From assembly GCF_009730915.1 (NCBI RefSeq), contig NC_052496.1, forward strand, positions 295,875 to 359,874: a stretch of 64,000 nucleotides of DNA. The letters run 5' to 3'. Every line of letters starts with the position of its first letter. The stretch's first letter is position 1. Positions 8,885 through 44,811 of this stretch are shown here, piece after piece. The position numbers and the translations under genes were made by a program. The notes under the pieces are model-generated. The model searched no databases. It saw only the letters and a list, made by a program, of their open reading frames with translations, and was not told the origin of the DNA. The stretch comes from Dioscorea cayenensis subsp. rotundata. Lineage: Eukaryota; Streptophyta; Magnoliopsida; Dioscoreales; Dioscoreaceae.

Positions 8885-11632
8885 ATGCATCGCTATTTTC
8901 CGGAGTTCTCTGCTTCAGCTTCTCATCTCAAGCTCCGGCGCCCACCTCCATCTCCATTGGAGAAGCTTTTAGCGGAAAAGAGAAGACCTTGCGGCCGTTT
9001 CTACAGTTCAAGATCCCCACCATTCCTAGATGGACAACTTGATGCTTATGGCGACCTCCTCTCTCTGTTTATTGGTTCTTCCTCTCCATCCCATTCCCAG
9101 AGCCTCCATGTTCATCTCTTTAAGAAAGGATTCGCTGAAGATGTCTTTTTGTCCAACAACCTCATCAACTCTTATGCGAGAACATCTCATATGGCGGATG
9201 CCCACAGGGTGTTCGACGAAATTCCTGAGAAGAATGTGGTGTCATGGACTTGCTTGATTGCCGGGTACACGCAAAATGGCTTTGCTTATGAATCTTGCCG
9301 TCTGTTTCGTTCGATGCTTTTCTCTGGATTCGCTCCCACTCACTTCACTTTCGGTAGTGTTCTTCGGGCGTGCATGGAACTCGGCCCTGAATGCATGGCT
9401 CTTGGTAAACAAATCCACGGGTTGATTATGAAAATGCTCTATGGAGTGGATACCGTGGTGTGCAATGCGTTAATATCCATGTATGGAGGTTGTTGCCTGG
9501 ACTCCACGAGATATGCTCGGCTAGTGTTTGATGGCGCATTGGTCAAGAACTCAATCTCTTGGAATTCTATTATATCTGTGCATTCTCAAAGAGGAGATGT
9601 TGTCCCGGTGTTTCAGCTTTTCTCTGAGATGCAGATGTGTGATTTAAGGCCAAACGAGTACACTTTTGGGAGTTTGATAACTGCAACTTATTCTTCTTGT
9701 TCTTCTTGTCTTGTTGAACAAATGCTCGCCAGAGTATGCAAGTCTGGTTTTTTAAGTGATCTTTACGTGGGCAGTGCTCTTGTTAGTGCTCTTGCAAGAA
9801 CTGGATTGCTTGATGAGGCTAGAAAATTTTTGAGGCAAATGAATGAGAGGAATGCTGTTACAATGAATGGTTTGATGGTGGGTCTCGTCAGGCAGGGCCG
9901 TGGAGAAGAAGCCGTGGATGTTTTCCGGGAAACATATGATTATCTTGTTCTCAATTGTGATTCTTATGTAGTTTTGCTTAGTGCTATAGCGGAGTTTTCA
10001 ACACCAGAGGAAGGTTGGAGAAGAGGGAGGGAAGTTCATGGGCTTGTTACTAGAACTGGTCTTATCAACTCTAAGGTTGCCATTGGGAATGGATTGGTTA
10101 ACATGTATGCAAAATGCGGCGCTAATGAGGAAGCTTGCAATGTATTCCAAAACATGAGTATGAGAGATCAAATCTCATGGAATTCAATGATTGCAGGTCA
10201 TGATCAAAATAATTGTTTTGAAGAAGCAATGGACACTTTCCGGGATATGATCAGCAGTGGTGTGATGCCTACAAATTATGCAACAATCAGCATGTTGAGT
10301 TCATGCGCTAGCTTGAGGCATTTCAGTGCAGGTTCACAAGTGCATTGTGCTGGGATTAAATTGGGCCTTGATTTTGATGTTTCTGTGTCAAATTCACTTC
10401 TTAACTTGTATGGTGAATGCGGTGATATTTCCGACTGCTGGAAAGTCTTTAGATCTATGCCGAGTTATGACCAGGTATCGTGGAATTGTATGATAGGAGT
10501 TTTAGCTGATTCCGAGAAGTCTGCAAGTGAATCAATTGAAGTTTTCCTAAATATGATGAGAAGTGGGTGGAGACCAAATAGAGTAACTTTTGTCAATCTA
10601 TTTGCTGCTTTGACACCACTTTCTGTTAGCAGTTTAGGCAGGGAGGTTCATGCATTGGCACTCAAATACGGGGTGTCAGACTACACTGCTGTCGAGAATG
10701 CGCTTATATATTGCTATGCAAAATCTGGAGAGATGGATGACTGTGAGCGCATTTTTCATAACATGTCAAGTAGAAGAGATGGTGTCTCATGGAATTCTAT
10801 GGTTGCCGGGTACATTCACAATGGACTAATGGCCAAAGTGATGGATTTTGTTTGGTTGATGGTTCACAATGGACAGAAGATGGATTGCTTCACCGTTGCC
10901 ACTGTCCTGAGCGCATGTGCCTCTGCTGTGACATTGAAACATGGAATGGAACTACATGCGTTCAGCATAAGATTTCTCTCGGAAACTGATGTTGTGCTGG
11001 ACAGCGCACTAGTTGACATGTACTCAAAGTGTGGAAGAATAGATTATGCGTCAACAGTCTTCAGATCGATGCCATTGAAAAATGAGTTCTCATGGAACTC
11101 AATGATTTCAGGCTATGCTCAACATGGACATGGAGAGAAGGCTCTTGAGCTCTTCAGGGAGATGCAGAGTGGGAATCAAAGACCAGATCATGTGACCTTT
11201 GTCGGAGTTTTATCTGCTTGCAGTCATGCAGGATTAGTGGAACAAGGTTTGGATTGTTTTGAATCTATGACTAACAAATACGAATTAGTTCCTCGAATGG
11301 AGCACTACTCATGTATTGCCGATCTCTTGGGTCGAGCTGGTAAGCTTGATAAGCTAGAAGAATTCATTAAAAGTATGCCAGTCAGTCCTAACATTCTCAT
11401 ATGGAGAACAGTGCTTGTTGCTTGCTCCCGATCAAAAGACGGAGCAAAAACCGATCTGTGGAAGCAGGCTTCGAAGATGCTTTTGGAATTAGAGCCTCAA
11501 AATCCTGTAAATTATGTTCTTACCTCACATATGTATGCCTCAAAAGGGAGGTGGGAAGAGATGGCAGAAACTAGAACAGCATTGAGTGGCAAACTGGTTA
11601 GAAAGGAAGCAGGTTGCAGCTGGGTCACTTAG
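8885..11632 (+). CDS. PLS-class pentatricopeptide repeat protein, E-type, lacking DYW domain
   Basis: An intronless 915-codon frame. An Arg/Ser-rich N terminus (about 60 residues), probably an organelle transit peptide, is followed by roughly twenty PPR motifs of P/L/S type (recurrent 'SWNSMI' and 'NALI.MY.KCG'). The C-terminal E motif ends in KEAGCSWVT and then stops. The repeat pattern and sequence match my memory of Arabidopsis At5g09950 (MEF7, mitochondrial RNA editing) closely enough to suggest orthology. That protein continues after GCSWV into E+ and DYW deaminase-like domains, and this one does not. It would bind organellar RNA and, if it edits, would need a DYW partner in trans. A short downstream string (MKAGYVL at 11682, another frame) resembles the start of the lost DYW region. 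The start ATG is the first after the divergent promoter. Confidence 0.9.
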   Translation: MHRYFPEFSASASHLKLRRPPPSPLEKLLAEKRRPCGRFYSSRSPPFLDGQLDAYGDLLSLFIGSSSPSHSQSLHVHLFKKGFAEDVFLSNNLINSYARTSHMADAHRVFDEIPEKNVVSWTCLIAGYTQNGFAYESCRLFRSMLFSGFAPTHFTFGSVLRACMELGPECMALGKQIHGLIMKMLYGVDTVVCNALISMYGGCCLDSTRYARLVFDGALVKNSISWNSIISVHSQRGDVVPVFQLFSEMQMCDLRPNEYTFGSLITATYSSCSSCLVEQMLARVCKSGFLSDLYVGSALVSALARTGLLDEARKFLRQMNERNAVTMNGLMVGLVRQGRGEEAVDVFRETYDYLVLNCDSYVVLLSAIAEFSTPEEGWRRGREVHGLVTRTGLINSKVAIGNGLVNMYAKCGANEEACNVFQNMSMRDQISWNSMIAGHDQNNCFEEAMDTFRDMISSGVMPTNYATISMLSSCASLRHFSAGSQVHCAGIKLGLDFDVSVSNSLLNLYGECGDISDCWKVFRSMPSYDQVSWNCMIGVLADSEKSASESIEVFLNMMRSGWRPNRVTFVNLFAALTPLSVSSLGREVHALALKYGVSDYTAVENALIYCYAKSGEMDDCERIFHNMSSRRDGVSWNSMVAGYIHNGLMAKVMDFVWLMVHNGQKMDCFTVATVLSACASAVTLKHGMELHAFSIRFLSETDVVLDSALVDMYSKCGRIDYASTVFRSMPLKNEFSWNSMISGYAQHGHGEKALELFREMQSGNQRPDHVTFVGVLSACSHAGLVEQGLDCFESMTNKYELVPRMEHYSCIADLLGRAGKLDKLEEFIKSMPVSPNILIWRTVLVACSRSKDGAKTDLWKQASKMLLELEPQNPVNYVLTSHMYASKGRWEEMAETRTALSGKLVRKEAGCSWVT

Positions 11633-20274: not shown

Positions 20275-20286
20275 TCTATAAATACC
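20275..20286 (+). promoter_or_regulatory. TATA box of SAP1
   Basis: CTCTATAAATAC lies about 90 bp upstream of the 5' UTR splice donor. The same box and flanks occur at the two other SAP copies (near 26997-27007 on the minus strand and 30784-30795), so the core promoter was duplicated with the genes. Confidence 0.65.
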
Positions 20287-20374
20287 CAACCAAACCTCCA
20301 CTCCAACCATCATCACTTCCTCGTAGAAATCTTATTCTCTTTTTTCCCTTTTGATCTCCGGATCAACAACTAAG

Positions 20375-20464
20375 GTAATGAAATTTAGGGTTAGGGTTAG
20401 GGTTTGGGTTTTGGAATTTAGGGTTAAGGTTCTCATACGATCTATTCAATTGTTTGATTTGCAG
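20375..20464 (+). promoter_or_regulatory. SAP1 5' UTR intron with telomere-like repeats
   Basis: Donor taag|gtaatg and acceptor tttgcag|AGATAG frame a 90-bp intron just before the start codon. It contains three near-consecutive TTAGGG/TTTAGGG units (20384-20409) and one more near 20419. The other two SAP copies keep the intron (26837-26910 minus, 30889-30975 plus) with fewer telomere-like units. Confidence 0.6.
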
Positions 20465-20478
20465 AGATAGATAGATTG

Positions 20479-20880
20479 ATGGCGCCGATTCCTTGTTTGA
20501 AGGGTTGCGGCTTCTTCGGCAATCCAGATCAGCGCAATCTCTGTTCCCAGTGCTATAAAGATGAGATCCTTGCATCAGTGAGGACATCGATCCAGAAGCA
20601 AATCCATCTTGAGAAGGAGATGACGGATCTGAAAGTTGAGCCAGTGGTGCCATTGCCGGCCATTAAGACGAAGACAGTGACGAAAACCACAAAGCGATGC
20701 GAATCTTGCAAGAAAAAAATAGGGCTGACGGGTTTCAGCTGCAAGTGCGGCGGTGAATTTTGCTCTTCTCATCGGCTGCCGGAGACGCATCACTGTTCTA
20801 TTGATTTCAAAGGTTCTGGTAAAAACTCCATTGCCAAGAATAATCCAGTAGTCAAGGCTGATAAAGTTCACAGGATTTGA
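20479..20880 (+). CDS. A20/AN1 zinc-finger stress-associated protein, copy 1
   Basis: An intronless 133-aa coding region follows a 5' UTR intron. The N-terminal A20 finger is CLKGCGFFGNPDQRNLCSQC (about residues 6-25). The C-terminal AN1 finger starts RCESCKKKIGLTGFSCKCGG and ends with FCSSH...THHC and the family tail NPVVKADKV (about residues 74-131). All zinc ligands are present. Plant SAPs of this layout act in abiotic-stress signalling, often binding ubiquitin through A20. The start is the ATG at 20479 (MAPIPC), shared with the two other copies. It is the most diverged of the three, at roughly 20 residue positions. It faces a decayed TAR gene, as the other copies face theirs. Confidence 0.92.
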   Translation: MAPIPCLKGCGFFGNPDQRNLCSQCYKDEILASVRTSIQKQIHLEKEMTDLKVEPVVPLPAIKTKTVTKTTKRCESCKKKIGLTGFSCKCGGEFCSSHRLPETHHCSIDFKGSGKNSIAKNNPVVKADKVHRI

Positions 20881-21780
20881 GAGTACTTTTCATGGATTTT
20901 TCATTCATAACTCCTTCATTAATTTCTCTTTTTTTTTCATCTTCTCCTCTTCTTCTTCTCTTCTTCTTCTCCTTCTTCTTCAACTCTTGTGTGACTGTAT
21001 ATAATTTTGATGAATATGTATATAAACGCTATTATTTTTATTTTATTTTATTTTTATTATGGCGTAAATGTATTGAAAGTTTTTTTATTTTTTATTTTTC
21101 TTACGATCAATTGTTTGGCTTCAGATGATTTATTGTTCTGTTGCTTTTTTTTTTTTAAGCTATAACTTTTTTATTCATTTAATTTTTTCCATTAAATTTT
21201 AGTTCTTTACGTTGAGTAAAGAAATTAAATTGTTATCTCTAATTTCTTGGTCTAATAGTATTGATTTTTTATGTATGGTTTTTATATCATAGATGATTCA
21301 AAATTAAATTCTAAAACCCCCAAATTTACCCAATGTTAGGGCATAGATGCTTGTTGAGTGTGCATATCCCTAATGTTTATTAAATTGAGTGTTTTTTGGC
21401 TATTTACTTAAAATAAATAAATAAATATTGAAGTATTAGTTAGTTATCCATTGATATTTAAATTTTATATCAAAACATTATCTCCCCTCGTTTTTCAACC
21501 TAATTTCATCATCTAAACCTTTACAGGGTGGAGATTATTTTATAAAAAAAATTTTTACTCGTAAAACAAAAAAGTCCAATAAATATGATTCATCCACTTT
21601 AATAATAAATATAATATGACAAACCACATGAAGGATATACATAAATATGTCACTTAATTAAACCGATTTTTTCAATAAACAAAAGTACAAGTAAAGAGTT
21701 GTGTCAAGAACACGAACACCAGTAAAGACTCAGTGTCAAATAAATTAAAACATCATTAATTTTTTAATTAAAAGATTATA
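20881..21780. other. spacer between SAP1 and decayed TAR
   Basis: The SAP1 3' UTR with CTT-rich stretches is followed by AT-rich DNA. No gene. The corresponding spacers of blocks B and C are shorter (about 640 bp). Confidence 0.5.
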
Positions 21781-21886
21781 TATCCAACAGGCAACAAACA
21801 AGAGCTTCCCATAACACATGAGAGCGACCATAATTAAGTTCTAATCAAACAAACAATACATATATTGCTTCATTAATTAGGCTGTT

Positions 21887-21920
<34 letters not shown>

Positions 21921-23240
21921 GACAAGAGCAGTCATCTTGGTAATCAGGCGATCAAATTATAAGTTATCCTGAGACTTGATCAAGCTAAGCCTAACATATT
22001 TTTTATATTCTAAATAGATGGCTCATGAGTACGCTAACTAATATCTTATATATACCTACAGCCCTGAGCACCCCATCACAATCTTCATCTTCGTCCATCT
22101 CACTTCAACCAGCCATGAGCTGCATGCATTTAATAATATATTAATCATCGATCCAATCTTAATTACAACTTCACTAAAAAATATTAATTAAAACTTATCA
22201 AACTCAAAGCGCATGCACCCACTGCACCCACACACATACACATATATATAGATCATATACAAACCTGGAAGCTGAAGATGGATCTCTTGTGGTATTAAAG
22301 TAGTTACAGTAAACGTTCAAGATAGTGAAACAACTTCCCTGAGATTGATTGGTTGTCTCTAGATGTACCATAAGCGTTCATACATTGTACAAATTCGATC
22401 TCTTTTTTATCAATGCCCATCTGCAATATTATTAGAACTTTGATCTTGGAGGCAGTGAAGATCAAGAGATCCTCATATGTTAGAAAGATTAGGATCTGTT
22501 ACTTTTGTTATATTTATACATACATTGAGTGCTTGTATATTCAGTGCAAACTAGAGTGTTCTATGTATGAGGATCAAGAGATCCACATATGTTAGAAAGA
22601 TTAGTATCTGTTACTTTTGTTATATATATACATGCATTGAGTGCTTGTATATTCAGTGCAAGTTAGAGTGTTCTACGTATGAGGAGAGAAGATGAAGTTA
22701 GTTGGTTATTTCTTTAATTAATTTTCTCTTGACTTCTTTAAAACATTAATTACATTCATTAACTATATAGAGATACACACACACATATGCTGGAGAGTGG
22801 AGACTTACATGCACGTACACCTATAACAGGACTTCAGTTGACAACATCCAACCACCAAAACATAGAGACCATACTGACTGACAAAATCACTACAGGACCA
22901 TGCTCATATATATATACTCCATGGTGTGCGGCTTGGTCCATCCCTCCAGACCATCCATAGCCATGCCTTCATTGATCCCTTGATAGACCGCTCACCAGCA
23001 TGCTACACAGCTTCTAATCAGCTAGCCTCAACATCATCAACAGCTTCAGTGATGGCAGTGAAATGAGGCCAATAATAAGCATGATCATGGATGTACTAAT
23101 TATGAGCCATTGAGAAGAGCCTTTTTAAGCAGTCCATCAGGGTTGTTGGAGGAGGTTACAAACTCTATGAAGTTGTTTGTGTATCCCTTTGATGCACTCA
23201 CCCATTCAGATGTCACTTCCTCTCAAACAGTTTAGAATAA
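21781..23240 (-). pseudogene. decayed alliinase/TAR gene, block A
   Basis: Minus-strand remnants of three 3' exons are recognisable by alignment to the intact TAR gene at 32.0-35.5 kb. Terminal-exon sequence lies at about 21910-22140, exon 4 pieces at about 22262-22430 and exon 3 at about 23040-23232. Frames are disrupted in several places and long stretches are missing. Exons 1 and 2 are absent. A 112-bp tandem duplication (22457-22682) sits between the exon 4 and exon 3 remnants. It lies tail-to-tail with SAP1, the same arrangement as in blocks B and C. It cannot encode an enzyme. Confidence 0.8.
22457..22682. repeat. 112-bp tandem duplication
   Basis: Two adjacent copies beginning 'GA(A/G)GATCAAGAGATCC' (22457 and 22569) and ending 'GAGTGTTCTA(T/C)GTATGA' are nearly identical. 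They lie inside the decayed TAR copy. Confidence 0.85.
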
Positions 23241-24022
23241 AAGAATATATATATATATATATATATATATTAGTTAAAAGTAATAATTCTTTTCTTCGCA
23301 AGTGTTTTTTTAAAAAAAAACTCTTCTCACTCGAGAAGTAGTGGACTTAATTCTCTCTTTTAGTAATAATTAAGATTTATGATTTATTTATATTTATTAA
23401 AAAAAATTATTTGTTTTATGTACTCGTTATTTATGACGCCTTGCATGGCATGAAAAAGAGTTATTTATTTATTATTTTAAAAATAATTTATCTAAGTGTT
23501 GCTTATAAAAATAATTTATTCAAGAAGTGCTTTTTCCAAAAGCACCACATGGCTAGTTTTAGAAAAAAAAATAATTTTTTTCAGCTTTTTTTTCTTAGTT
23601 TCTGCTTCAACAGAAAAACTAATACAAACATATTTTTCTAGTCCAGAAATGCTTAACTTATAAAAAAACACTGCATTTACTTTTATTTATTTGGTTTGAT
23701 GTAAGTTTAAAACTATAATTACCATGTAAGTAAGATGGTAAAATTACTAAAATTATCTATTATTATTAATTATTTAATACTCATAAAAAATTTAATTTAA
23801 GTAAAAAAATTAATTAATTTAATAAATTATTTATTAAATTTAAAAATATTTAATATCTCTTTAATTTTTTATTTTAAAAAATTAATTAATTTCTAAAAAC
23901 ACTTACTCTATTTATTATTTTTATAATATTTTCAATAATATTTTTTTTATAAATTATTTAATTATATAAATATTTAGTTATAAAAATATAATATTTATAT
24001 AATTAAATAGTCATACAGACAG
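23241..24022. other. AT-rich junction between blocks A and B
   Basis: An (AT)n run near 23246-23270 is followed by about 700 bp of AT-rich DNA with no gene. It separates the two TAR remnants, which sit with their truncated ends toward each other. Confidence 0.5.
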
Positions 24023-24060
24023 CAATGATATGCATGTTTATATATATGTAATAAATAGCC

Positions 24061-25773
24061 ATACAGGCAGCAAACTGAGTACTTTGATTCTATACTGTCG
24101 GAATGGAGAGGAGTGACATCTGAATGGGTGAATGCATCAAAGGGATCAACAAACAACTTCATAGAGTTTGTAACCTCACCCAACAACCCTGATGGAGTGC
24201 TTAAAAAGGCTCTTCTCAATGGTTCATTAACCATCAATGATCATGCTTATTATTGGCCTCATTTCACTGCCATCTCAGAACCTGTTGATGAGGATGTCAT
24301 GCTTTTCACTACCTCCAAGCTCACTGGCCATGCTGGTAGTAGGTTCGGGTATGTACCTCTGATAATTAGATCAAACATATATATATATCTTTATGTAATT
24401 TTCTCCATTTTAATGTTAATATATGTTGTAGATGGGCATTAATAAAGGATGAGAATGTGTACAATAGAACACTGAGATATGTGGAGCTAAACACTGAAGG
24501 TACATCTAGAGACACTCAACTAAGAATGCTGAAGCTTTACAAGGTGATACTGATAATTACTACACAGAGAGTTAAGACCAAGAGGAACAACTTTCTTATA
24601 CAAATCAAACACTAAAAACAACTCCTTGGATCTGGAAAATTCATACAAGATGAGATCAACCAGAAAAAACAGAAATACTGAACAGCTTCACTAAAATAGA
24701 GATACCAATTTGTACACAACTCTGATTCCTCTGATATTCAATACATGAACAACCAACAACATGAGCAACAAAAGTCTAATACAAAGTTTTAGTCAAAACT
24801 CTCTCAGATTCACAGGAAAATTCACTGAACACACTTAAGAACAGAAAATTTCAGAAAAACATTACATTAACTCATTAAAACACATAACCTTATAAACTAT
24901 ACAATACTTGGGTACCCAAAAAGAAACTGGCGCTGAATCACTATAGCACGTGTCTCCACCAGACTCAAACCAACCGCTTAAGCTTCTCACCGTTCATCTG
25001 CCTCGAACTTACATCAAACCTTTGATTAATCGATCCTGGCCATTGATCACACTGAATTAACTCTTCTACAGACTGCCTCGAACTTAAACTTCATCTAAGA
25101 TCAAATGAATCTCAGCCCTTGGTTATCTTCCAGCCATCTCCTAACAAACTTAACTGATATTTGAACACCTGAAAAGACACAAACACCCTTCCAATTGAAA
25201 CTATTGACACCAGGACACTTCAGAGACTTCAATCTGCTTTTCTTCTTCACTTCAACTCCAAATTCTCTTTTGCTTCAATTACAGCTGACAGATACTGGCT
25301 AAACTAGGAGGAGGAAAAGGTGACATCTTTACCTTTGGTTATAAGACAATGAGAAAGAGGTGGATCAAACTCAACCAAGTTGTTTCTTTATCTAAACTTT
25401 TTTCTCTTCAAAAGCTACCAACTTCTCAGTACTGCAACTACTTCAATACCACCAGACATCCATCTCCAGGCATGTATATAAGATTGGATTAGTACTTTTT
25501 ATTAATATTTTTAGAGAAGTTGTAATTAAGATTGGATGATTAATTTTATTGCATTAAATGCATGCAGCTTATGGTTGGTTGAAGTGTGAGATGGAAGAAG
25601 ATGAAGATTGTGATGCGGTGCTCAGGGCTGGAGGTATTAGTGGGCGTTCAGGAACCATCTATTCAGATGATAAAAAGCATGTTAGAGTTAGCTTGATCAA
25701 GTCTCAGGATGACTTTGATCAGCTGATTACCAAGTTGACTGCTCTTGTCACCCAGACAAAAACAACAGCCTAA
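24061..25773 (+). pseudogene. 5'-truncated alliinase/TAR gene, block B
   Basis: The plus-strand copy contains exons 3, 4 and 5 of the TAR gene, with frames almost identical to the intact copy at 32.0-35.5 kb: TSPNNPDG and TTSKLTGHAGSRFG in exon 3, and AYGWLKCEMEEDEDCD in exon 5, ending at a TAA at 25771. Exons 1-2, coding the signal peptide, EGF-like domain and first part of the C-terminal domain, are missing. Exon 4 is interrupted by a 740-bp solo LTR. It therefore cannot make a full enzyme. The near-identity of its remaining exons to the intact gene points to a recent origin. Confidence 0.88.
24551..25290. mobile_element. solo LTR of an LTR retrotransposon
   Basis: A 740-bp insertion begins TGATAATTAC and ends AGCTGACA (TG...CA), flanked by an exact 5-bp duplication GATAC (24546-24550 and 25291-25295). 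The palindromic partner at 32.5 kb and the intact gene there show the empty site with one GATAC. No internal domains are present, so it is a solo LTR. It inserted after the block B/C duplication, so it is young. Superfamily is not determinable from the LTR alone. Confidence 0.9.
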
Positions 25774-26420
25774 AATTAACAAGCAATATGTATATATATA
25801 TATACATTATTTGTTTGACGAGTTATGATATTTGTATTATTACAATAAAGAGAGCTTCAAAGGGTGGATTTTATGTATATGATCCCATTATTATGGGAAG
25901 CTCGTCGTTGCTTTGGAAGTGTTGTATGTTTGTTGGATAATCTTTTGATCAATAACACATTATGTCATATTGTTTAAATTGAAACACCATTCATTCATAA
26001 ACTATAATTATATATTCATTCATACAAACATTATCTCATGTTTGTTTTTTTAAAATTAGTTGTAAAATTTAAACATTAGTGATTAGCTGATTGTTAATTA
26101 AGTACATAGTTAACAAAAAGAAACCATCAATATCAATATTTTTCTTGAAACATATTTTCCAAAAATCCCAAATTAATATATATATATATTATGCAAAGAG
26201 TTATACAAATAACTAAAAAAAAAAGAATTACAGTTTAAAAATATTGAAAAAACTTTGAATATATTCCCGCCACAACAAAAATTAAATAAGAATAAAATCA
26301 ATATCGTCTATAAATTCTTTAAAATTATATACAGAGTCACTCTCAATCACAACACACGCGTTGAAGAAGAAAAAGAAATTAAGGAATTATGAATTATTAC
26401 AAATCCCATGAAAAGTACTC
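25774..26420. other. spacer between truncated TAR and SAP2
   Basis: The two 3' ends face each other here. The spacer is nearly identical, in inverted orientation, to 31392-32031. No gene. Confidence 0.6.
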
Positions 26421-26822
26421 TCAAATCTTATAAACTTTATCAGCCTTGACTACTGGATTATCCTTGGCAATGGCTTTCCTACCAAAACCCTTGAAATCAA
26501 AAGAACAATGATGCACCTCCGGCAGCCGATGAGTCGAGCAAAACTCACCGCCGCACTTGCAGATGAAACCCGTCAACCCTATCTTTTTCTTGCAAGATTC
26601 ACACCGCTTCGTGGTCTTCGTCACTATCTTCGTCTTAATCGGCGGCAATGGTACCAGTGGTTCTGCTTTCAGATTCATCATCGCCATCTCACGATTGATT
26701 TGATCTTGGATTGATGCTCTCACTGACGCAAGGATCTCATCTTTGTAGCACTGGGAACAAAGATTGCGCTGTTCTGGATCGCCGAAGAAGCCACAACCCT
26801 TCAAACAAGGAATCGGCGCCAT
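26421..26822 (-). CDS. A20/AN1 zinc-finger stress-associated protein, copy 2
   Basis: A 133-aa intact frame, complement strand. It has the A20 finger (CLKGCGFFGDPEQRNLCSQC) and an AN1 finger with all Cys/His ligands (RCESCKKKIGLTGFICKCGG, FCSTH, VHHC). It differs from copy 3 at only about two residues (S/T near residue 38 and V/A just before HHC) and from copy 1 at about twenty. It has its own TATA box (near 26997-27007) and 5' UTR intron (26837-26910), so it is probably expressible. It lies tail-to-tail with the truncated TAR copy and head-to-head with SAP3 across the central array. Confidence 0.92.
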   Translation of the reverse strand: MAPIPCLKGCGFFGDPEQRNLCSQCYKDEILASVRASIQDQINREMAMMNLKAEPLVPLPPIKTKIVTKTTKRCESCKKKIGLTGFICKCGGEFCSTHRLPEVHHCSFDFKGFGRKAIAKDNPVVKADKVYKI

Positions 26823-27299
26823 CGATCTATCTATCTCTGTAGATCAAACAAATGAGAACCTAGCTTAATTAGAATTCCGAAACCCAAACCCTAACCCTAA
26901 ATTTAATTACCTTAATGGTTGGTCTATATCGAAAGGAAAAAAAAGAAGAAGATTTCTAGGAGAAAGTGAAGATGGTTGGAGTGGAGGTTTGATTGGGTAT
27001 TTATAGAGGTCTAGTGTTGTTTAAATAAGTTTGGGTTTGATTTGATTTAGAATTAGATTTTTAACAATTTTGGAAAGTAAATTGTAATAACTAATAATTG
27101 AAAGATTAGGTTTTAATTTTGAGTTGTAGTTTGAGTTTGAGTCGAATTTTATCACATTATTTGTTTTTTAAAAATTTTAAAAGAAGTCAGGTTCTAGAAA
27201 ACCAAGCAATTTAAATTTAATTTATTTAAACTAATTAAACTGGCTCTATATCTGTAGAGATAAAATTGATTATAAATAATTTAAATCAATCTCAAAATT

Positions 27300-30200
27300 C
27301 ATACAAAAATTTAAAACCTCACGTGACAAAATAAATAATTTAAATTTAAATTTAAATTTACACCACTAATGACACTTAAGCCACCTTGCTTGGCCACTAT
27401 AGACTTTATATGGCCAGACAAGCTTGTTGGTGACTACCGCATCCTAATGGATGTCCCTTAACCCCGATGAACTGCTGCCATATGGGACACACGAGGTGAG
27501 CTTGCAAATTAAAATAAATAAATAAATAAATAAATAAATAAAAAATAAAGAGAAAAATGTAATATTAAAAAAAACTAATTAAAAAATTCACATGGAATTA
27601 AAAATCAGTTAATTTTATTAAAGTGATGTATGGTAACACATCTTCAATTGGAGGGAGTTGAGGGTTGATTGAGTGCTCAACACAACTCTTTCCCATTAGA
27701 GAAGGTCCGTGGTTACCAACAGTTTAATTAGTAGATCCCTTTTTTTAAAAATTAAAAAATATGTTTTTAAATTCAAATATCATGGTGCCCACATTTTAAT
27801 TAAAATAGGTTTAATTAAATAATTTTTTTATCACCCACAAATTTAATGAAATTTTAATAAAATTATAATAATTTATTATTATTCGCATATTTTTAATAAA
27901 ATTTTAAATTTAGTTTAATTTTTAACCACTAATGAGTAATGACACATGGATGAGCTTAACCTTCTTTAAAGGTCACAAAAGGTTGAGTTCGCAAATTAAA
28001 AAAAATGTATATATATATATATATATAAGTATTATTAAAATGTGGGCTCCATTATATTTGAATTTTAAAATAGTATTTTTTTTAATTTTTAAAAAATGGG
28101 ATCTACTGAATAAACGGTTAGCGGCCACTGACCTTCTCTAATTAATGGGGAAGAATTGTGTTGAGCGCTCAATCAACCATCAACTCCTCCAATTAAAGAT
28201 GTGTTACTATACATCACTTTAATAAAATCAACTGATTTATAATTCCATATGGAATTTTTAATTAATTTTTTTAATATTACATTTTTGTCATTATTTTTTT
28301 TAATTGATAAATTGCGAGCTCACCTTGTGTGTCCCTTATGATTTGCTTAGCTAAGAAAGGTCATCCACGTGTCATTAGTGGTGTAAATTTAAATTTAAAT
28401 ATAAATTTATTTTTATTTTTGTTTATGTGTTTTTTTCATGTGATATTTTTAAATTTTTATATGACTCTTGAGATTGATTTAAATTATTCATAATAATCAA
28501 TTTTATCTCTAATAAGTATCATTTTTATTTACTCCAAACAAATATAGAGCTAGTTTAGTTTAAATAAATTAAATTCAAATTTCTAGGTTTACTAAAACCT
28601 GACTTCTTTTAAAATTAAAAAAAAAATAGTATGATAAAATTCGACTCAAATTCAAACTACAACTCAAAATTAAAACCTAATCTTTTAGTTATTAGTTATC
28701 ACACACTTTACTTTCTAAAATCGTTAACAAATCTAATTCTAAATCAAAACAAAACCAAAGTATTTAAACTGGTTCTATATCTGTCCGTTTGGAGTAAACA
28801 AAAATGATACTTGTTAGGGATATAATTGATTATAAATAATTTAAATCAGAAGATTCATATAAAAATTTAAAAATCTCATGTGACAAAAAAAACATAAATA
28901 AATTTAAATTTAAATTTAAATTTAGTTTAATTTTTAACCACTAATGACACATGGATGAGCTTAACCTTCTTTAAAGGTCACAAAAGGGTGAGTTCGCAAA
29001 TTAAAAAAAAATGTATATATATATATATATATATAAGTATTATTAAAATGTGGCTCCTTTATATTTGAATTTTAAAATAGTATTTTTTTTAATTTTTAAA
29101 AAATGGGATCTACTGAATAAACGGTTAGCAGCCACTGACCTTCTCTAATTAATGGGGAGGAATTGTGTTGAGCGCTCAATCAACCATCAACTCCTCCAAT
29201 TAAAGATGTGTTACTATACATCACTTTAATAAAATCAACTGATTTATAATTCCATATGGAATTTTTAATTAATTTTTTTAATATTACATTTTTGTCATTA
29301 TTTTTTTTTAATTGATAAATTGCGAGCTCATCTTGTGTGTCGCTTATGATTTGCTTGGCTAAGAAAGGTCATCCACGTGTCATTAGTGGTGTAAATTTAA
29401 ATTTAAATATAAATTTATTTTTATTTTTATTTTTATTTATGTGTTTTTTTCATGAGATTTTCTTAAATTTTTATATGAATCTTGAGATTGATTTAAATTA
29501 TTCATAATAATCAATTTTATCTCTAATAAGTATCATTTTTATTTACTCCAAACAAATATAGAGCTAGTTTAGTTTAAATAAATTAAATTCAAATTTCTTG
29601 ATTTACTAAAACCTGACTTCTTTTAAAATTAAAAAAAAAATACTGTGATAAAATTCAACTCAAATTCAAACTACAACTCAAAATTAAAACCTAATCTTTT
29701 AGTTATTTGTTATTACACACTTTATTTCTAAAATAGTTAACAAATCTAATTCGAAATCAAATCAAACCCAAAGTTATTTAAACTGGTTCTATATCTGTCC
29801 GTTTGGAGTAAACAAAAATGATACTTGTTAGGGATATAATTGATTATAAATAATTTAAATCAGAATATTCATATAAAAATTTAAAAATCTCATGTGACAA
29901 AAAAACATAAATAAATTTAAATTTAAATTTAAATTTAGTTTAATTTTTAACCACTAATGACACATGGATGAGCTTAACCTTCTTTAAAGGTCACAAAAGG
30001 GTGAGTTCGCAAATTAAAAAAAATGTATATATATATATATAAGTATTATTAAAATGTGGCTCCATTATATTTGAATTTTAAAATAGTATTTTTAAAATTT
30101 TTAAAAAATGGGATCTACTGAATAAACGGTTAGCGGCCACTGACCTTCTCTAATTAATGGGGAAGAATTGTGTTGATCAACCATCAACTCCTCCAATTAA

Positions 30201-30800
30201 AGATGTGTTACTATACATCACTTTAATAAAATCAACTGATTTATAATTCCATATGGAATTTTTAATCAATTTTTTTAATATTACATTTTTGTCATTATTT
30301 TTTTTTAATTGATAAATTGCGAGCTCACCTTGTGTGTCGCTTATGATTTGCTTGGCTAAGAAAGGCCATCCACGTGTCATTAGTGGTGTAAATTTAAATT
30401 TAAATATAAATTTATTTTTATTTTTATTTATGTGTTTTTTCATGTGATATTTTTAAATTTTTATATGAATCTTGAGATTGATTTAAATTATTCATAATAA
30501 TCAATTTTATCTCTAATAAGTATCATTTTTATTAACTCCAAACAAATATAGAGCTAGTTTAGTTTAAATAAATTAAATTCAAATTTCTTGGTTTACTAGA
30601 ACCTGACTTCTTTTAAAATTTAAAAAAAATATTGTGATAAAATTCGACTCAAATTCAAACTACAACTCAAAATTAAAACCTAATCTTTTAGTTATTAGTT
30701 ATTACACACTTTACTTTCTAAAATCGTTAACAAATCTAATTCTAAATCAAATCAAACCCAAACTTATTTAAACAACACTAGACCTCTATAAATACCCAAT
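27300..30800. repeat. tandem array of ~1-kb units at the palindrome centre
   Basis: Landmark 'GACACATGGATGAGCTTAAC' recurs at 27941, 28946 and 29959, a period of about 1005-1013 bp. The units look very similar by eye. Each unit contains inverted segments: 'CCACTAATGACACATGGATG' at one edge pairs with 'CATCCACGTGTCATTAGTGG' further on, and 'AGTATCATTTTTATTTACTCC' pairs with 'GGAGTAAACAAAAATGATAC'. Each unit also includes sequence related to the DNA upstream of the SAP promoters. A diverged inverted partial copy lies at about 27340-27760. No coding frame of note. Confidence 0.85.
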
Positions 30801-30989
30801 CAAACCTCCACTCCAACCATCTTCACTTCCTCGTAGAAATCTTCTTCTATTTTTTCCCTTTCGATCTCCCGACCAACCAACAACTAAGGTAATTAAATCT
30901 AGGGTTAAGGTTTGGGTTTCGGAATTCTAATTAAGCTAAGTTCTCATACGATCTATTCAATTGTTTGATTTACAGAGATAGATAGATCG

Positions 30990-31391
30990 ATGGCGCCGAT
31001 TCCTTGTTTGAAGGGTTGTGGCTTCTTCGGCGATCCAGAACAGCGCAATCTTTGTTCCCAGTGCTACAAAGATGAGATCCTTGCGTCAGTGAGAGCAACG
31101 ATCCAAGATCAAATCAATCGTGAGATGGCGATGATGAATCTGAAAGCAGAACCACTGGTACCATTGCCGCCGATTAAGACGAAGATAGTGACGAAGACCA
31201 CGAAGCGGTGTGAATCTTGCAAGAAAAAGATAGGGTTGACGGGTTTCATCTGCAAGTGCGGCGGTGAGTTTTGCTCGACTCATCGGCTGCCGGAGGCGCA
31301 TCATTGTTCTTTTGATTTCAAGGGTTTTGGTAGGAAAGCCATTGCCAAGGATAATCCAGTAGTCAAGGCTGATAAAGTTTATAAGATTTGA
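30990..31391 (+). CDS. A20/AN1 zinc-finger stress-associated protein, copy 3
   Basis: A 133-aa intact frame with A20 (residues ~6-25) and AN1 (~74-120) fingers and all zinc ligands, almost identical to copy 2. TATA box at 30784-30795 and 5' UTR intron 30889-30975 (aag|gtaatt ... ttacag|AGATAG). Its 3' end faces the 3' end of the intact TAR gene 640 bp away. The product is a cytosolic/nuclear stress-associated protein by family. Redundancy with copy 2 is expected. Confidence 0.92.
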   Translation: MAPIPCLKGCGFFGDPEQRNLCSQCYKDEILASVRATIQDQINREMAMMNLKAEPLVPLPPIKTKIVTKTTKRCESCKKKIGLTGFICKCGGEFCSTHRLPEAHHCSFDFKGFGRKAIAKDNPVVKADKVYKI

Positions 31392-32031
31392 GAGTACTTT
31401 CATGGGATTTGTAATAATTCATAATTCCTTAATTTCTTTTTCTTCTTCAACGCATGTGTTGTGATTGAGAGTGACTCTGTATATAATTTTAAAGAATTTA
31501 TAGACGATATTGATTTTATTCTTATTTAATTTTTGTTGTGGCGGGAATATATTCAAAGTTTTTTCAATATTTTTAAACTGTAATTCTTTTTTTTAGTTAT
31601 TTGTATAACTCTTTGCATAATATATATATATATTAATTTGGGATTTTTGGAAAATATGTTTCAAGAAAAATATTGATATTGATGGTTTCTTTTTGTTAAC
31701 TATGTACTTAATTAACAATCAGCTAATCACTAATGTTTAAATTTTACAACTAATTTTAAAAAAACAAACATGAGATAATGTTTGTATGAATGAATATATA
31801 ATTATAGTTTATGAATGAATGGTGTTTCAATTTAAACAATATGACATAATGTGTTATTGATCAAAAGATTATCCAACAAACATACAACACTTCCAAAGCA
31901 ACGACGAGCTTCCCATAATAATGAGATCATATACATAAAATCCACCCTTTGAAGCTCTCTTTATTGTAATAATACAAATATCATAACTCGTCAAACAAAT
32001 AATGTATATATATACATATTGCTTGTTAATT
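31392..32031. other. spacer between SAP3 and intact TAR
   Basis: Shared 3'-flanking DNA of two convergent genes. Near-identical inverted copy at 25774-26420. Overlapping 3' UTRs are possible. No gene. Confidence 0.6.
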
Positions 32032-32669
32032 TTAGGCTGTTGTTTTTGTATGGGTGACAAGAGCAGTCAACTTGGTAATCAGCTGATCAAAGTCATCCTG
32101 AGACTTGATCAAGCTAACTCTAACATGCTTTTTATCATCTGAATAGATGGTTCCTGAACGCCCACTAATACCTCCAGCCCTGAGCACCGCATCACAATCT
32201 TCATCTTCTTCCATCTCACACTTCAACCAACCATAAGCTGCATGCATTTAATGCAATAAAATTAATCATCCAATCTTAATTACAACTTCTCTAAAAATAT
32301 TAATAAAAAGTACTAATCCAATCTTATATACATGCCTGGAGATGGATGTCTGGTGGTATTGAAGTAGTTGCAGTACTGAGAAGTTGGTAGCTTTTGAAGA
32401 GAAAAAAGTTTAGATAAAGAAACAACTTGGTTGAGTTTGATCCACCTCTTTCTCATTGTCTTATAACCAAAGGTAAAGATGTCACCTTTTCCTCCTCCTA
32501 GTTTAGCCAGTATCACCTTGTAAAGCTTCAGCATTCTTAGTTGAGTTTCTCTAGATGTACCTTCAGTGTTTAGCTCCATATATCTCAGTGTTCTATTGTA
32601 CACATTCTCATCCTTTATTAATGCCCATCTACAATATATATTAACATTAAAATTGAGAAAATTACAGAA

Positions 32670-32706
<37 letters not shown>

Positions 32707-33033
32707 TGATCTAATTATCAGAGGTACATACCCGAACCTACTACCGGCATGGCCTGTGAGCTTGGAGGTAGTGAAAAGCATGACATCCTCATCAACAGGT
32801 TCTGAGATGGCAGTGAAATGAGGCCAATAATAAGCATGATCATTGATGGTTAATGAACCATTGAGAAGAGCCTTTTTAAGCACTCCATCAGGGTTGTTGG
32901 GTGAGGTTACAAACTCTATGAAGTTGTTTGTTGATCCCTTTGATGCATTCACCCATTCAGATGTCACTCCTCTCCACTCCGCCAGTTTAGAATCAAAGTA
33001 CTCAGTTTGCTCCCTGTATGGCTATTTATTATA

Positions 33034-33065
<32 letters not shown>

Positions 33066-35504
33066 AACATGCATATCATTGCATGCATGCTATTAATTAG
33101 TCTACGTAAAGAAATTAAGGAAATAATTAAAAGATAAACTACAATTGATACTCATAATGCTTACAGCGTAGTAAGGGACGGAGGCGACCACACTGTCCGG
33201 AGATGAGGTGTTGAGGGAGCCGGCGAGGGCGTGGACAAGGGCGTAAAGAAGCTGAGTAGAGCCGGCACCGAAGACGATGAACTTATCATCGGTGACTGCG
33301 TTGCCAACGGCGCGGTGAAGCATGCGAATGTGGCGTTCCAGTTCCGTCGTGATGTAGTTCTTGCCGGTGGTTGAGTAGCTCATCCGGTGCCATCCGGCCA
33401 CCACCACCGCGCTGTCCGCCGCGTGCTTCTCCCAGTAGGGTTTCAGAAATAGTGGATCTCCACTGTATATTATTATTATTATTATTAGCGGGAGAGGTAG
33501 ATACATATATGGTAAAAATAATACTCACATCTGACATGAAATTGTCATGATTTTGATAATAATATTTGAAATTTAATTAAATATATTATTATTTAAATTT
33601 TTTAAAAATAATACACTTGGTCTAAATTTTAAAAATTATTTATAAATTCTCTTATTATTTGAATGATTCTTTTAAATTTTTTTTTGTCAAATAGAGTTTA
33701 ATAAAAATATTATAATAAAACTATATATAAAAGATAAATTCATGCTATATATTATTTATAAATTACTCTCTTCAATAAATCATAATTAATTTATAACTAA
33801 ATTGTAAGTACTTTTGTGGTTTAGTAAAGCATTCCCTCAAATAATTTATAATTAATTTTGAACTAAATTACAAATATTTTCATATTGTTGCAATACAACC
33901 CTTCTAAATATATACAATTAATTGAAATTTATATTTGAACAATATTTTTATATAAAAAATTCATCAATTTTTTAAATTATAAATATTTTTTAATTATAAA
34001 TATTTGTGAAATTATAATTTACTTTTAAAATTTTGATATAAATATTTCAATATTATTATAATGTTATATGATTTTGACAGAAAAATTTGTAATGAAAGAT
34101 TGACACCTGGCACGAGACTATCATACTTTAATATATATAGATCATTACAAAACTTTTTTTATTGTTTTGAATTTGGTGACATATTTATTACATTTATTAT
34201 TAAAATAGATTTTATTTTTATTTTTTCAATTTTATTAAGAATAATTAAATTAAATTTTGGTCAACTTAACCATCCTTTGCTTGAGGTGATAATAATTCTT
34301 ATATAAAAATCTTTTTTCTTTTAACATTTATCCTTCCCAAATTATGTGAAGGATATATGAGACCATATTAATTTTTTTTAAAAAAATATAATAGTAGTGT
34401 TAAAGGGCACTAACAGCTGTTGACCAATAAAATCTTGGCTTTACAATTCTTTAAATTTTATAAATTTTTTAGGAAAATTATTTTTCAGGTTTTTTTTTTC
34501 AACGTGGACAAACCTATACCACGGGAGACTCCACATGGGCCATGCACAAGGAGCCCGGCCCATCATGCATTTGATGAGAATTGAACTTTCAACTCCTCCC
34601 ATGGAAAGGAATAACTTCACCATTGTGATGTTATTAGTTTTTTAAAATACCAAACATGCCCTTGCACACATGGCGTTGGATATGACATGATGATAACCCA
34701 ACATTAGTGAGATCTCCCTCAACAATGATGGTGTTCATCCAGAAGCAGAGTATTCTCTGATCCTCTCTTATCACATTCTGACATGTATGCTGTTATGTTT
34801 TTATGTCGTGATTAGGAATACGTGTCAAACTGTGATAAAAAAAACAGACTAAAAAATAATCTAGTTATGGAACAAAGCAAGATGACTTCACTAAAAAAGG
34901 GCTCTTGTCTTGGAAGCGCTTACACTAGTGCAAGGCGCACTCATGATATATAAGCAAGTGTGCCCAAATTTGAGGGTCAAATAAAGTACTCATAGACAAG
35001 CAAGTGTTTATGGTCCGGTTTATTTATAATTTATATGATTTTAAATTTAGAAATAATTTTTTTTAAAATAAAGATATTTTGAAAATATAAAAACTAGAAT
35101 ATTTAAGAAATTAAAAAGATGCACAGCTTCTCCATGTATCGGTGATTCGGTGGTCCATGCATAATTAACACAAAATAGTAAATTTATCCTCTAGTGTTGA
35201 AGTATGAAGGGAAGGAAGAACTAAACACTGACCTCTCTGCATTGGCTGTACAATTAGAGAAGAATATAGAGCAATCATCACCACCATAGCAAGTGTTGCA
35301 CTCGCATGATGGTTTACCGTCAACGATGTCGCCGTCAATATAAGCTTGGCCGTGGCCGGAGCAGTAGATAATGGCCACACCTTCAGCCTCGGTTGCCGCT
35401 TTCCGGGACCATCCAAGCTTTGGACAAGCAGAAACAATGGTGTGGCAGATAAGGATGAAGAAAAAGAAGAAAACTTCATTCTTGTGGATTTGAGACCCTG
35501 CCAT
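32032..35504 (-). CDS. alliinase-fold aminotransferase, TAR3/4-like (intact, block C)
   Basis: Five exons, complement(32032..32237, 32336..32628, 32732..33021, 33165..33462, 35233..35504), give 452 residues. The order is: signal peptide (residues ~1-26), six-Cys EGF_alliinase domain (YCSGHG...SCECNTCYGGDDCS, ~48-85), then the PLP-dependent alliinase/aminotransferase domain. Visible motifs are SPNNPDG (~230-236), HAYYWPH (~252-258) and TTSKLTGHAGSRFG, whose Lys (~277) should bind PLP. The family includes alliinases (S-alk(en)yl-cysteine sulfoxide lyases) and tryptophan aminotransferase-related proteins of the indole-3-pyruvate auxin route. I cannot choose between them from sequence alone. The EGF domain plus signal peptide fits TAR3/TAR4-like secretory or vacuolar members. 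The last intron uses a GC donor (CCAG|gcatgt). Start is the Met opening MAGSQIHKNE. It lies tail-to-tail with SAP3. Confidence 0.9.
33463..35232 (-). other. intron 1 of the block C TAR gene
   Basis: A 1.77-kb AT-rich intron carrying a SINE near 34492-34634. No other gene. It separates the EGF-coding exon from the catalytic exons, as in the second intact TAR gene. Confidence 0.7.
34492..34634 (-). mobile_element. tRNA-derived SINE in TAR intron 1
   Basis: On the minus strand an A-box-like CACAATGGTGAAG is followed by a B-box-like AAGTTCAATTCTC about 35 bases on, then a GC-rich body (GGGCCGGGCTCC) and an A10 tail. This is the usual order of a plant SINE. Target duplications were not resolved. 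Confidence 0.5.
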
Positions 35505-41806: not shown

Positions 41807-44760
41807 TCAAATAGAACTTATGCTCGAATGATCAGAAACCAGAGCATCCATTTTTTGCACCAACTGATCAAAATCATCTTGTGTTTTGACCAAACTCAAT
41901 CTAACGTACCGATCATCGGCTTCAAATAAGCTACCTTCACGGCAAATTATACCCGCATTTTTTAGCACAACATCACATTCTTGGTCTTCATCCCTCTCGC
42001 ATTTCAACCAAGCATACGCTGCAAGAATATTTTCAATCTTATATTAAGATATTGTTATCTTATTATATATGCATCTCTATTATATATATATATATTATAT
42101 GCATGATATTACATATATATATATGATTATTACCGGGAGAAGGATCTCTGATGGTTTTGAAGTAATTGCAATACTGAGAAGGAATAGTTTGAAGAGAGAA
42201 ACGTTTAGACTTTGAAACAACTTTGTTAAGTTTGGTCCATCTCTCTCTCATTGTTTGGTATCCAAATGAAAAGATGTCACCTTTTCTTCCATGTTCTGCA
42301 AGTATAACTTTGATGATCTTCAACATCCTCAGTTGTGTATCCCGAGACACACCCATTGTGTTCAATTTCATGTAATATATCGCCTTCTTGTAAACTTGCT
42401 CATCTTTTATCAATGCCCATCTACAATATATACAATTCATCTCAACCTTGTATATATGCAGTTACATAATTAATAGAAGTTCAAAGAAAAGTATTAGTAG
42501 CAAGAGAGGGTATTACCCAAACCTACTGCTGGCATGGCCGGAAAGTTTGGAGCTAGAGAAGATCATGACATTGTGATCAGAAGGGGCAGGGATGGCAGTG
42601 AAGTGTGGCCAGTAATAAGCATAGTCATAAATGACTGATGAACCACCAAGAATAGACTGTTTAAGAAGTCCATCAGGATTGTTAGGTGAAGTCACAAACT
42701 CAATGAAGTTGTTCATTGATCCATCTGATGATGATGATGATGATGATGATATTGATTCATTAACCCAGCTTGATGTCACTCCTCTCCATTCTGCCAGTTT
42801 TGAATTAAAGAGATCCACTTGCATTTTGTATACCTACGTACATGCATAAATAATATCATTAAAGCACTAATTAAGTAACGAGCTCTCTAAAGTGAGTCAT
42901 CGAGATATATATATATATATATATATATAAGAAAACTAACAGGGTAGTAAGGAATGGAAGCGACGACGCTGGCAGGGGAGGAAGAGTTATGGGGAGAGAG
43001 AGCGTGGACAAGAGCATAAAGAAGTTGGGTGGAGCCGGCGCCGAAGATGATGAAGCGATCGTCGACGACGGCATTGCCGACGATGCGATGGAGCTTTCGG
43101 ATATGTTGCTCAAGCTCAACGGAGATGAAGTTTTCTCCGGTGGCATCGTAGCCCATCCGGTGCCATCCGGCCACCACCACTGCACTGCCCTTTGCATGTC
43201 TGTACCAGTATGGCTCCAGAAACAATGGATTTCCACTGCCATTTAATAATAATTATTATAATAATAATAAGATTATTATTAAAAGTTCAACTCCTCAAGT
43301 GGTATGTGGAAACAGAGAATAATGCTAATTATACTTCATACAAGGGTCTTAATTTTTATTATGATGTTTTTCAAAATTAAAAGAATCTTTGATGCATGTT
43401 TTTATAATTTTTTTTTTTTTTTTGTGATTTTTAACATATTTTTTATATTTATTATTTGGGTGTTTCCAGTTCCTGAATAGAAGAGATCAAAATTAAAAGA
43501 CTCAATACATGCGGTCAAAAAAAATCTGGAGTTTGCAGACTTTCTGAAGGGTGAGTCGAATAGCCTCTAATAATTAAGAGTAGCATTGTGTGGTAGTTAG
43601 TTTACTAGTACTGACACCTTGAGCCTCAGATATTTTTTTTTTCTTTTCTAATCAAAGAACCTATGTTGTCTTTGTTTTTTCCCTTGTTGTTCACATTTCT
43701 ATTTAGCCAACGTATTTTCCCTTGTCTTTGTTTTTTTTTTGGTCCCTTTTTTTTTCATCTACTCTTTTTTTTCTTGCAAGTAAAAATTTTAGGATTTTAC
43801 TGTTTTTGATGATTGAGTTTCAATTTATTTTTTTTTCAATTACCCTATATTGATTCTATTCACTGAGAAGTTACCCATAAAATTCTAATTAATTTTTGCT
43901 GAATTAGTCATTAGAATTAAATGTCATACATTAAACTAAAGTTATTTAATTCAAACTAGCTTGAATACATCAGTAAGGTGTGCGGGAAATACACATCAGC
44001 ATATACCTCATAAAGGGCTTCTCATGAAATGCTGATGTGTATGGTGATATGTATTTCTAACACACTTTGCTAATGTGTTCAAACCAGCGTGGATTAAATA
44101 ACTTTAGTTTAATACATGACATATAATTTTGGTGGTCAACTCAGCAAAAATTGATCAGAATTTTATAGGTGATTTCCTGATGAAACAGAATTAATGTAGG
44201 ATGATTGACAAAAATTTTTTTTTTGAAATTCAATGAGTAAAGTGACAAACTATCATAGTACAGTGGCCTCTTAAAATTTTTACCCATTTCTTTGCTTATA
44301 AATATATCCCAGCACTATCATCAACATTGCTGTGTTCATCAAAGCAATGAAAGTAATAATAATAGAGTAATGTTATATAGAGCGAAGCAATTACAGGAAC
44401 CAGCCACACAACTGATGTGGCTGGTAACATGGCAAACGATTTAAGTTTTTTTCAATAAAAAATTAAAAAAAAATTAAAAAAATTAAAAAGAGAGTAAAAG
44501 AGCCTATTGTCTCTTTTACTTTATCACTCTCTCTCTCTCGTGTGGCTCAATGGTCCTGACGCAGAGCCACACGAGAGAGAGTGGCAAAGTATAAAAGACA
44601 ATCGGCTCTTTTACTTTCTTTTTTTATTTATTTTTATTTTTTTTATTAAAAAAAATTAAATCGTTTGTCATGTCACCAGCCACATCAATTTGTCATGTCA
44701 CCAGCCGCATCAGTCATGTGACTGGTTCGTGTGATTGCTTCACTCCACATAGCATTACTC

Positions 44761-44811
<51 letters not shown>

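What the first reader, a model, noticed from the sequence alone, without database searches (positions are those of the whole stretch)
20275..35504. A convergent SAP-TAR gene pair is present three times, once inverted
Each block has an A20/AN1 zinc-finger gene facing the 3' end of an alliinase/TAR gene. The order is A: SAP1(+), decayed TAR(-); B: truncated TAR(+), SAP2(-); C: SAP3(+), intact TAR(-). All three SAP frames, their TATA boxes and 5' UTR introns are intact, while two of three TAR copies are dead and both lack exons 1-2. SAP has been kept and amplified while TAR was repeatedly truncated, so selection may act on SAP dosage, with TAR exons as passengers.
Basis: partly seen in the sequence, partly recalled or inferred. 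Interest (0 to 1): 0.7.

Follow-up and report, generated by a model that had tools for sequence, protein, structure and literature searches.

The report
Duplicated SAP genes with TAR fragments
A small stress-protein gene and the tail end of its neighbour were copied several times in this plant genome, once in reverse orientation in this stretch; two of the copies were probably made nearly identical again by DNA exchange, which looks like ordinary gene duplication rather than a sign of selection for more copies.

Summary
The arrangement is real: three A20/AN1 SAP genes with intact frames face two dead alliinase/TAR fragments and one intact TAR gene. Blocks B and C form an inverted repeat. From just before the SAP start codon to TAR exon 4 they differ at 7 of 1580 sites, against 24 of 403 on the promoter side; a change-point scan was not matched in 500 permutations. 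The tract is mostly non-coding, so gene conversion is the best reading, and SAP2/SAP3 similarity cannot date the duplication. Both truncated TARs end within 85 bp of each other beside an intron AT repeat; TAR B also holds a probable solo LTR.

A genome search with SAP3 found 10 places; 5 keep an open SAP frame. One C4 copy keeps TAR debris in the same convergent order. So SAP copies die too. SAP lies inside the copied segment and TAR at its edge, which explains the asymmetry without dosage selection. SAP1 against SAP2/3 shows purifying selection (dN/dS about 0.3); dosage selection was not tested. Ordinary segmental duplication with probable gene conversion.

The parts
20277..20880 (+). SAP1 (block A): TATA box, 5'-UTR intron, coding exon 20479-20880
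21921..23243 (-). TAR A: decayed remnant of exons 3-5; stops and frame changes; ends at an AT microsatellite
24020..25773 (+). TAR B: exons 3-5 only; exon 4 interrupted
24551..25290 (-). 740-bp insert, TG...CA with 5-bp duplication GATAC: probably a solo LTR inserted in TAR B exon 4
   Evidence: structure only; genome copy number not obtained
26421..27005 (-). SAP2 (block B): coding exon 26421-26822, 5'-UTR intron, TATA box
27479..28340 (.). imperfect palindrome (74%) at the centre of the B/C inverted repeat
27891..30773 (.). three tandem copies (third partial) of a roughly 1-kb unit upstream of SAP3, each holding distal SAP promoter sequence; the SAP2 side has one copy
30787..31391 (+). SAP3 (block C): TATA box, 5'-UTR intron, coding exon 30990-31391
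30940..32532 (.). tract nearly identical to block B: 7 of 1580 aligned sites differ, probably gene conversion; the matching stretch on the B side is about 24528-26860 including the insert
32032..35504 (-). TAR C: intact five-exon alliinase/TAR gene, 448 aa

Best explanation
The locus is a product of segmental and inverted duplication. A SAP gene convergent with a TAR gene (best represented by block C) was copied together with the last exons of its 3' neighbour. Copies lie locally (block A), elsewhere in the genome (a C4 copy with TAR debris) and, as an inverted copy, in block B. Because SAP is short and lies inside the copied segment while TAR is 3.5 kb long and straddles its edge, copies carry a whole SAP and a headless TAR. 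Blocks B and C, as facing inverted arms, later exchanged sequence by gene conversion over about 1.6-2 kb, covering the SAP coding exon and TAR 3' exons but not the SAP promoter. A probable solo LTR landed in TAR B. Shown: anatomy, identity steps, the insert's ends and duplication, other genomic copies. Inferred: direction and order of events, conversion as the cause of the identity step, geometric truncation.
For: B/C substitutions: 24/403 on the promoter side, 7/1580 in the tract, 11/468 on the outer TAR side (Fisher 8.8e-12 and 5.2e-4; the region borders were chosen after seeing the differences). A change-point scan gives 13/1986 inside 30971-32976 against 29/470 outside; 0 of 500 permutations reach its score. 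The tract is mostly non-coding (3 of 402 CDS sites differ, the rest 4 of 1178, CDS count), while A-C distance is 12.5% in the 5' intron, 12.2% in the CDS and 16.1% in the 3' UTR. B-C is 0 of 180 in the next intergenic piece, where C and the C4:19316 copy differ at 35 of 178. Upstream, the B unit differs from the C units by 11-14% in two of the blocks compared, falling to 5% next to SAP3. Both truncated TARs end, in TAR C coordinates, at about 32998 and 33082 beside an AT repeat. DNA search finds 10 SAP places on 5 contigs; one C4 copy keeps TAR exon-4 and 3' sequence downstream in the same convergent order.
Against: The distal promoter is fast-evolving in every comparison (A-C 63/174, C-C4 26-29%), so part of the promoter-side B/C divergence is rate, not lack of conversion; relative to A-C the step is 0.16 in the distal promoter, 0.27 in the proximal, 0.9-1.0 in 5'-UTR exon 1 and 0.4 in the 5' intron, against 0.06 in the CDS and 0.03 in the 3' UTR. 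No relative's genome was available, so the ancestral state of the pair is unknown. In an unrooted tree SAP1 groups with the C4/C2 copies (ultrafast bootstrap 82), so block A is not clearly sister to B/C. An assembly that copied reads between arms would give the same identity step.
Confidence: 0.72

Rival explanations
1. Selection for SAP dosage: extra SAP copies were favoured and kept, with TAR exons as free passengers.
For: Three intact SAP frames, TATA boxes and readable introns in the window; omega about 0.3 for SAP1 against SAP2/3; this SAP group makes up 6 of the 11 A20 places found in the genome.
Against: 5 of 10 SAP-derived places lack an open frame and SAP too is reduced to a promoter-only piece. 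SAP2/SAP3 similarity is probably due to conversion. Low omega over an old split shows past function, not benefit of copy number: C4_19060, which is frameshifted, still gives omega 0.09 by NG86 against C4_19316 (0.36 by YN00).
Confidence: 0.12
2. Assembly artefact: B and C are haplotypes or a misjoined inverted copy, or the identical tract was made by consensus polishing.
For: 99-100% identity over much of the tract; no reads could be inspected.
Against: The arms differ by 6% on the promoter side with several indels, by tandem-unit number (1 against 3) and by a 740-bp insert; the window has no N. A polishing artefact limited to the tract is not excluded.
Confidence: 0.1
3. SAP was spread by a mobile element that captured it (for example a Helitron or MULE).
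For: SAP-derived sequence on five contigs; C4, C2 and C1999 copies share flanks on both sides.
Against: The flank shared downstream is full length in only 4 places and partial in a fifth (40 of 132 candidates scored, so a lower bound); C2 and C4_19060 are collinear over about 6.7 kb in three pieces, up to the ends of the C2 stretch held. Common termini were not seen in the stretches held, but flanks were too short to rule them out.
Confidence: 0.08

Closest known systems
Partial (incomplete) segmental gene duplication
   Same: Complete copy of an interior gene, truncated copy of the gene at the edge; local copies and copies on other contigs
   Different: Orientation alternates between neighbouring blocks, and both TAR cuts in the window lie beside one AT microsatellite
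Ectopic gene conversion between duplicated genes (signatures in 26 of 184 young human duplicate pairs, PMC4546093, passages seen; reported for pear duplicates, PMC5816897, passages seen)
   Same: A bounded tract of near identity between otherwise more diverged copies
   Different: Seen here between facing inverted arms, with the tract edge about 20-50 bp before the SAP start codon, so the coding exon is homogenised and the promoter is not
Plant stress-associated proteins (A20/AN1 SAP family)
   Same: A20 plus AN1 in one coding exon; expansion by duplication (PMC9696418, passages seen, reports 9-32 SAPs in the angiosperms it surveyed, whole-genome duplication the main mode)
   Different: This group grew by local and dispersed segmental copies
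Alliinase / TAR aminotransferase family
   Same: EGF_alliinase plus Alliinase_C, full 448-aa gene in block C
   Different: Enzymatic activity unknown; the copies beside SAP1 and SAP2 are fragments

Membership tests
A20/AN1 SAP | A20 zinc finger near the N terminus | tested here: met
   PF01754, residues 4-27, 34.2-36.7 bits against cut-off 21.6, 3 of 3 proteins
A20/AN1 SAP | AN1 zinc finger near the C terminus | tested here: met
   PF01428, residues 74-109 or 74-110, 40.1-42.7 bits against cut-off 27.9, 3 of 3
A20/AN1 SAP | stress-responsive expression and stress function | not testable with these tools
   no expression data
Alliinase/TAR family | EGF-like plus alliinase C domain in one protein | tested here: met
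   TAR C only: PF04863 4.2e-25, PF04864 2.3e-149
Alliinase/TAR family | tryptophan aminotransferase or alliin lyase activity | not testable with these tools
   sequence closest to 1LK9, then 3BWN; activity not inferred
Ectopic gene conversion | identity step with tract boundaries not explained by constraint | tested here: met
   partly confounded by faster promoter evolution
Ectopic gene conversion | ortholog quartet showing paralogs closer to each other than to orthologs | not testable with these tools
   no related plant genome held (note)
Solo LTR | TG...CA ends and 5-bp target duplication | tested here: met
   740 bp, GATAC on both sides
Solo LTR | same sequence flanks full elements elsewhere | not tested
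   the genome search did not complete; no second copy in the window and the loci held
SAP in a mobile element | shared termini and target duplications across copies | tested here: inconclusive
   copies share long flanks with differing ends in the short stretches held

The most novel reading that the evidence does not exclude
Facing inverted arms keep the SAP2 and SAP3 proteins nearly identical by gene conversion while the tract stops just before the start codon, so the promoters (one upstream unit against three) drift apart. The pair would be a natural case of coding homogenisation with regulatory divergence, and the palindrome itself would be the device that preserves the extra SAP copy.
Probability: 0.12. 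Interest if true: 0.5.

Novelty: new member of a known kind. Interest (0 to 1): 0.25.

Why it matters
It shows how gene order and length alone can make one gene look selected and its neighbour look doomed, and how gene conversion can make a duplication look younger than it is. If the promoter/coding split is functional, the locus would be a compact test of whether conversion preserves duplicate proteins while their regulation diverges.

Tried and rejected
Rejected: dating B/C from SAP2/SAP3 Ks (the tract is probably converted). Rejected as general: 'all SAP copies are intact'. Considered and not supported: SAP carried by a high-copy mobile element. A link to the reported rice OsSAP1-aminotransferase interaction (PMC4949214, abstract and section outline seen) was judged a coincidence; nothing here tests it. 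The species was not identified. The 10 kb on either side of the window hold no SAP or TAR match (L032, L033).

Papers: seven searches answered; several listings were cut short (15 of 91, 10 of 108, 10 of 29 papers). One of them paired SAP terms with alliinase/TAR terms (6 papers, none with a SAP-TAR gene pair in its title or abstract start). I make no wider claim that the pair is not in print. Passages were seen in PMC9696418, PMC4546093 and PMC5816897; the other papers were seen as listings only.

Not obtained: genome copy number of the central 1-kb unit and of the putative LTR, and a genome-wide DNA search for further TAR 3' debris. The genome search tool answered 4 times and was busy otherwise.

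Full report
What is there. Three open 133-aa frames at 20479-20880 (+), 26421-26822 (-) and 30990-31391 (+) each carry A20 and AN1 zinc fingers above the Pfam cut-offs, a TATAAATA box 183-203 bp upstream of the ATG and a readable 5'-UTR intron of 74-90 bp. Downstream of SAP1 lies a minus-strand TAR remnant (21921-23243) with stops and frame changes; facing SAP2 is a plus-strand TAR fragment with exons 3-5 only (about 24020-25773); downstream of SAP3 is a five-exon TAR gene (35504-32032) that splices to 448 aa, with EGF_alliinase and Alliinase_C domains and alliin lyase and L-tryptophan aminotransferase as nearest solved relatives. One TAR C intron has a GC donor.

Inverted repeat. B and C align as an inverted repeat from about 24020-27375 to 33082-30374 (the outer end read by eye). 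Its centre, 27479-28340, is an imperfect palindrome (74%). The SAP3 side has three copies (the last partial) of a roughly 1-kb unit, about 95% alike, each holding distal SAP promoter sequence; the SAP2 side has one.

Identity step. Between B and C, 24 of 403 aligned sites differ on the promoter side (30500-30939), 7 of 1580 in 30940-32532, and 11 of 468 in 32533-33020; Fisher 8.8e-12 and 5.2e-4, with borders chosen after seeing the differences. A one-segment likelihood scan, which does not choose borders by eye, puts the low-divergence segment at 30971-32976 (13 of 1986 against 29 of 470), and none of 500 permutations reaches its score. Only 402 bases of the tract are SAP coding; they hold 3 of its 7 differences. 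As yardsticks, A and C differ by 12.2% in the coding exon, 12.5% in the 5' intron and 16.1% in the 3' UTR, and C and the C4:19316 copy by 35 of 178 in the piece after the 3' UTR, where B and C differ at 0 of 180. Against this reading: the distal promoter is fast-evolving in all comparisons (A-C 63 of 174; C against the three C4 copies 26-29%), so some of the promoter-side difference is rate. In 5'-UTR exon 1, B-C (8/89) is about as far as A-C (8/92). In the central unit, blocks of B against the C units differ by 38-42% (first block, probably not homologous), 11-14%, 24-25% (around a B-only stretch), 7-13%, and 5% next to SAP3. Gene conversion between the arms is the simplest reading; a polishing artefact confined to the tract cannot be excluded.

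TAR damage. In TAR C coordinates TAR A ends at about 32998 and TAR B at about 33082, both next to the (AT)n repeat of intron 2. This may be one inverted-duplication junction or a fragile repeat hit twice. TAR B exon 4 also holds a 740-bp insert with TG...CA ends and a GATAC duplication, read here as a solo LTR. Its copy number in the genome was not obtained.

Elsewhere in the genome. The A20 family search gives 11 places, six of them in this SAP group. A DNA search with 30774-31600 gives 10 places: C26 three (this window), C4 three, C8 two, C2 one, C1999 one. Open SAP frames: 5 of 10 (three here, C4:19316093 and C4:19331550). The C4 copy at about 19.0600 Mb has a one-base insertion just after the start codon; both C8 copies have frameshifts or stops; C2 is wrecked; C1999 lacks the coding exon. 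A further promoter-only piece lies at C4:19327791-19328185. The C4:19331 copy leaves homology about 20 bp after its stop and has other sequence in place of the usual 3' UTR. The C4:19316 copy keeps TAR exon-4 and 3' sequence downstream in convergent order. It is the only one of the 7 places outside the window at which TAR sequence was seen, but TAR was looked for in only 2.9 kb at each C8 copy, 3.0 kb at C2 and 2.2 kb at C1999, against about 10 kb at each C4 copy. Other TAR genes found by the Alliinase_C search: TAR D in this window and one on C17:681595-683043.

Selection. SAP1 against SAP2 and SAP3: dN 0.092, dS 0.33 and 0.31, omega 0.28 and 0.30; 1 and 0 of 1000 codon bootstraps had dN>=dS. 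YN00 gave omega about 0.40 for both and failed for SAP2/SAP3. SAP2 against SAP3 has one synonymous and two nonsynonymous changes and says nothing. The frameshifted C4 copy also gives low omega (0.09-0.36 by NG86 against the SAPs and its C4 sisters), so such values show past function. Unrooted, the coding tree places SAP1 with the C4/C2 copies (bootstrap 82); in the promoter tree the A branch is long. NG86 dS between the groups block A, block B/C, C4 with C2, and C8 runs from 0.18 to 0.49 (wrecked copies included), which looks like old splits of similar age.

Reading. A short gene inside a copied segment stays whole and a long gene at its edge loses its head. That, with later conversion, gives the pattern seen without any dosage selection. 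Purifying selection on SAP is supported; selection on copy number is untested. The finding is an example of known processes. The bold reading, near-identical proteins with separately evolving promoters, is open and testable by expression data.

Noticed in passing
41837-45237 (-): TAR D: a further alliinase/TAR gene, matching TAR C over residues 28-441 in exon-like pieces; tandem neighbour of TAR C. Not spliced here.
   Followed up: partly
L034 and L035 (C8:15044483-15044909 and 15067027-15067446): Two SAP pseudogenes whose homology to SAP3 spans only from the 5'-intron acceptor to the stop codon; the two share flanks (91% over 1.5 kb) that do not match block C.
   Followed up: partly
C4:19331975-19334109 (L009:5376-7510): A 2.1-kb stretch that follows SAP in two C4 copies and in C2 and C1999; full length in 4 places, partial on C1, with a short piece (148-287) found in many places.
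   Followed up: partly
48470-49705 (-): Pieces of a Copia-type reverse transcriptase (RVT_2).
   Followed up: no
8885-11632 (+) and 57935-60856 (+): Ordinary genes: a PPR protein with E motif and a CSE1/exportin-2-like protein, each in one open frame.
   Followed up: no
22456-22685: A 112-bp tandem duplication (93%) inside the decayed TAR A.
   Followed up: no
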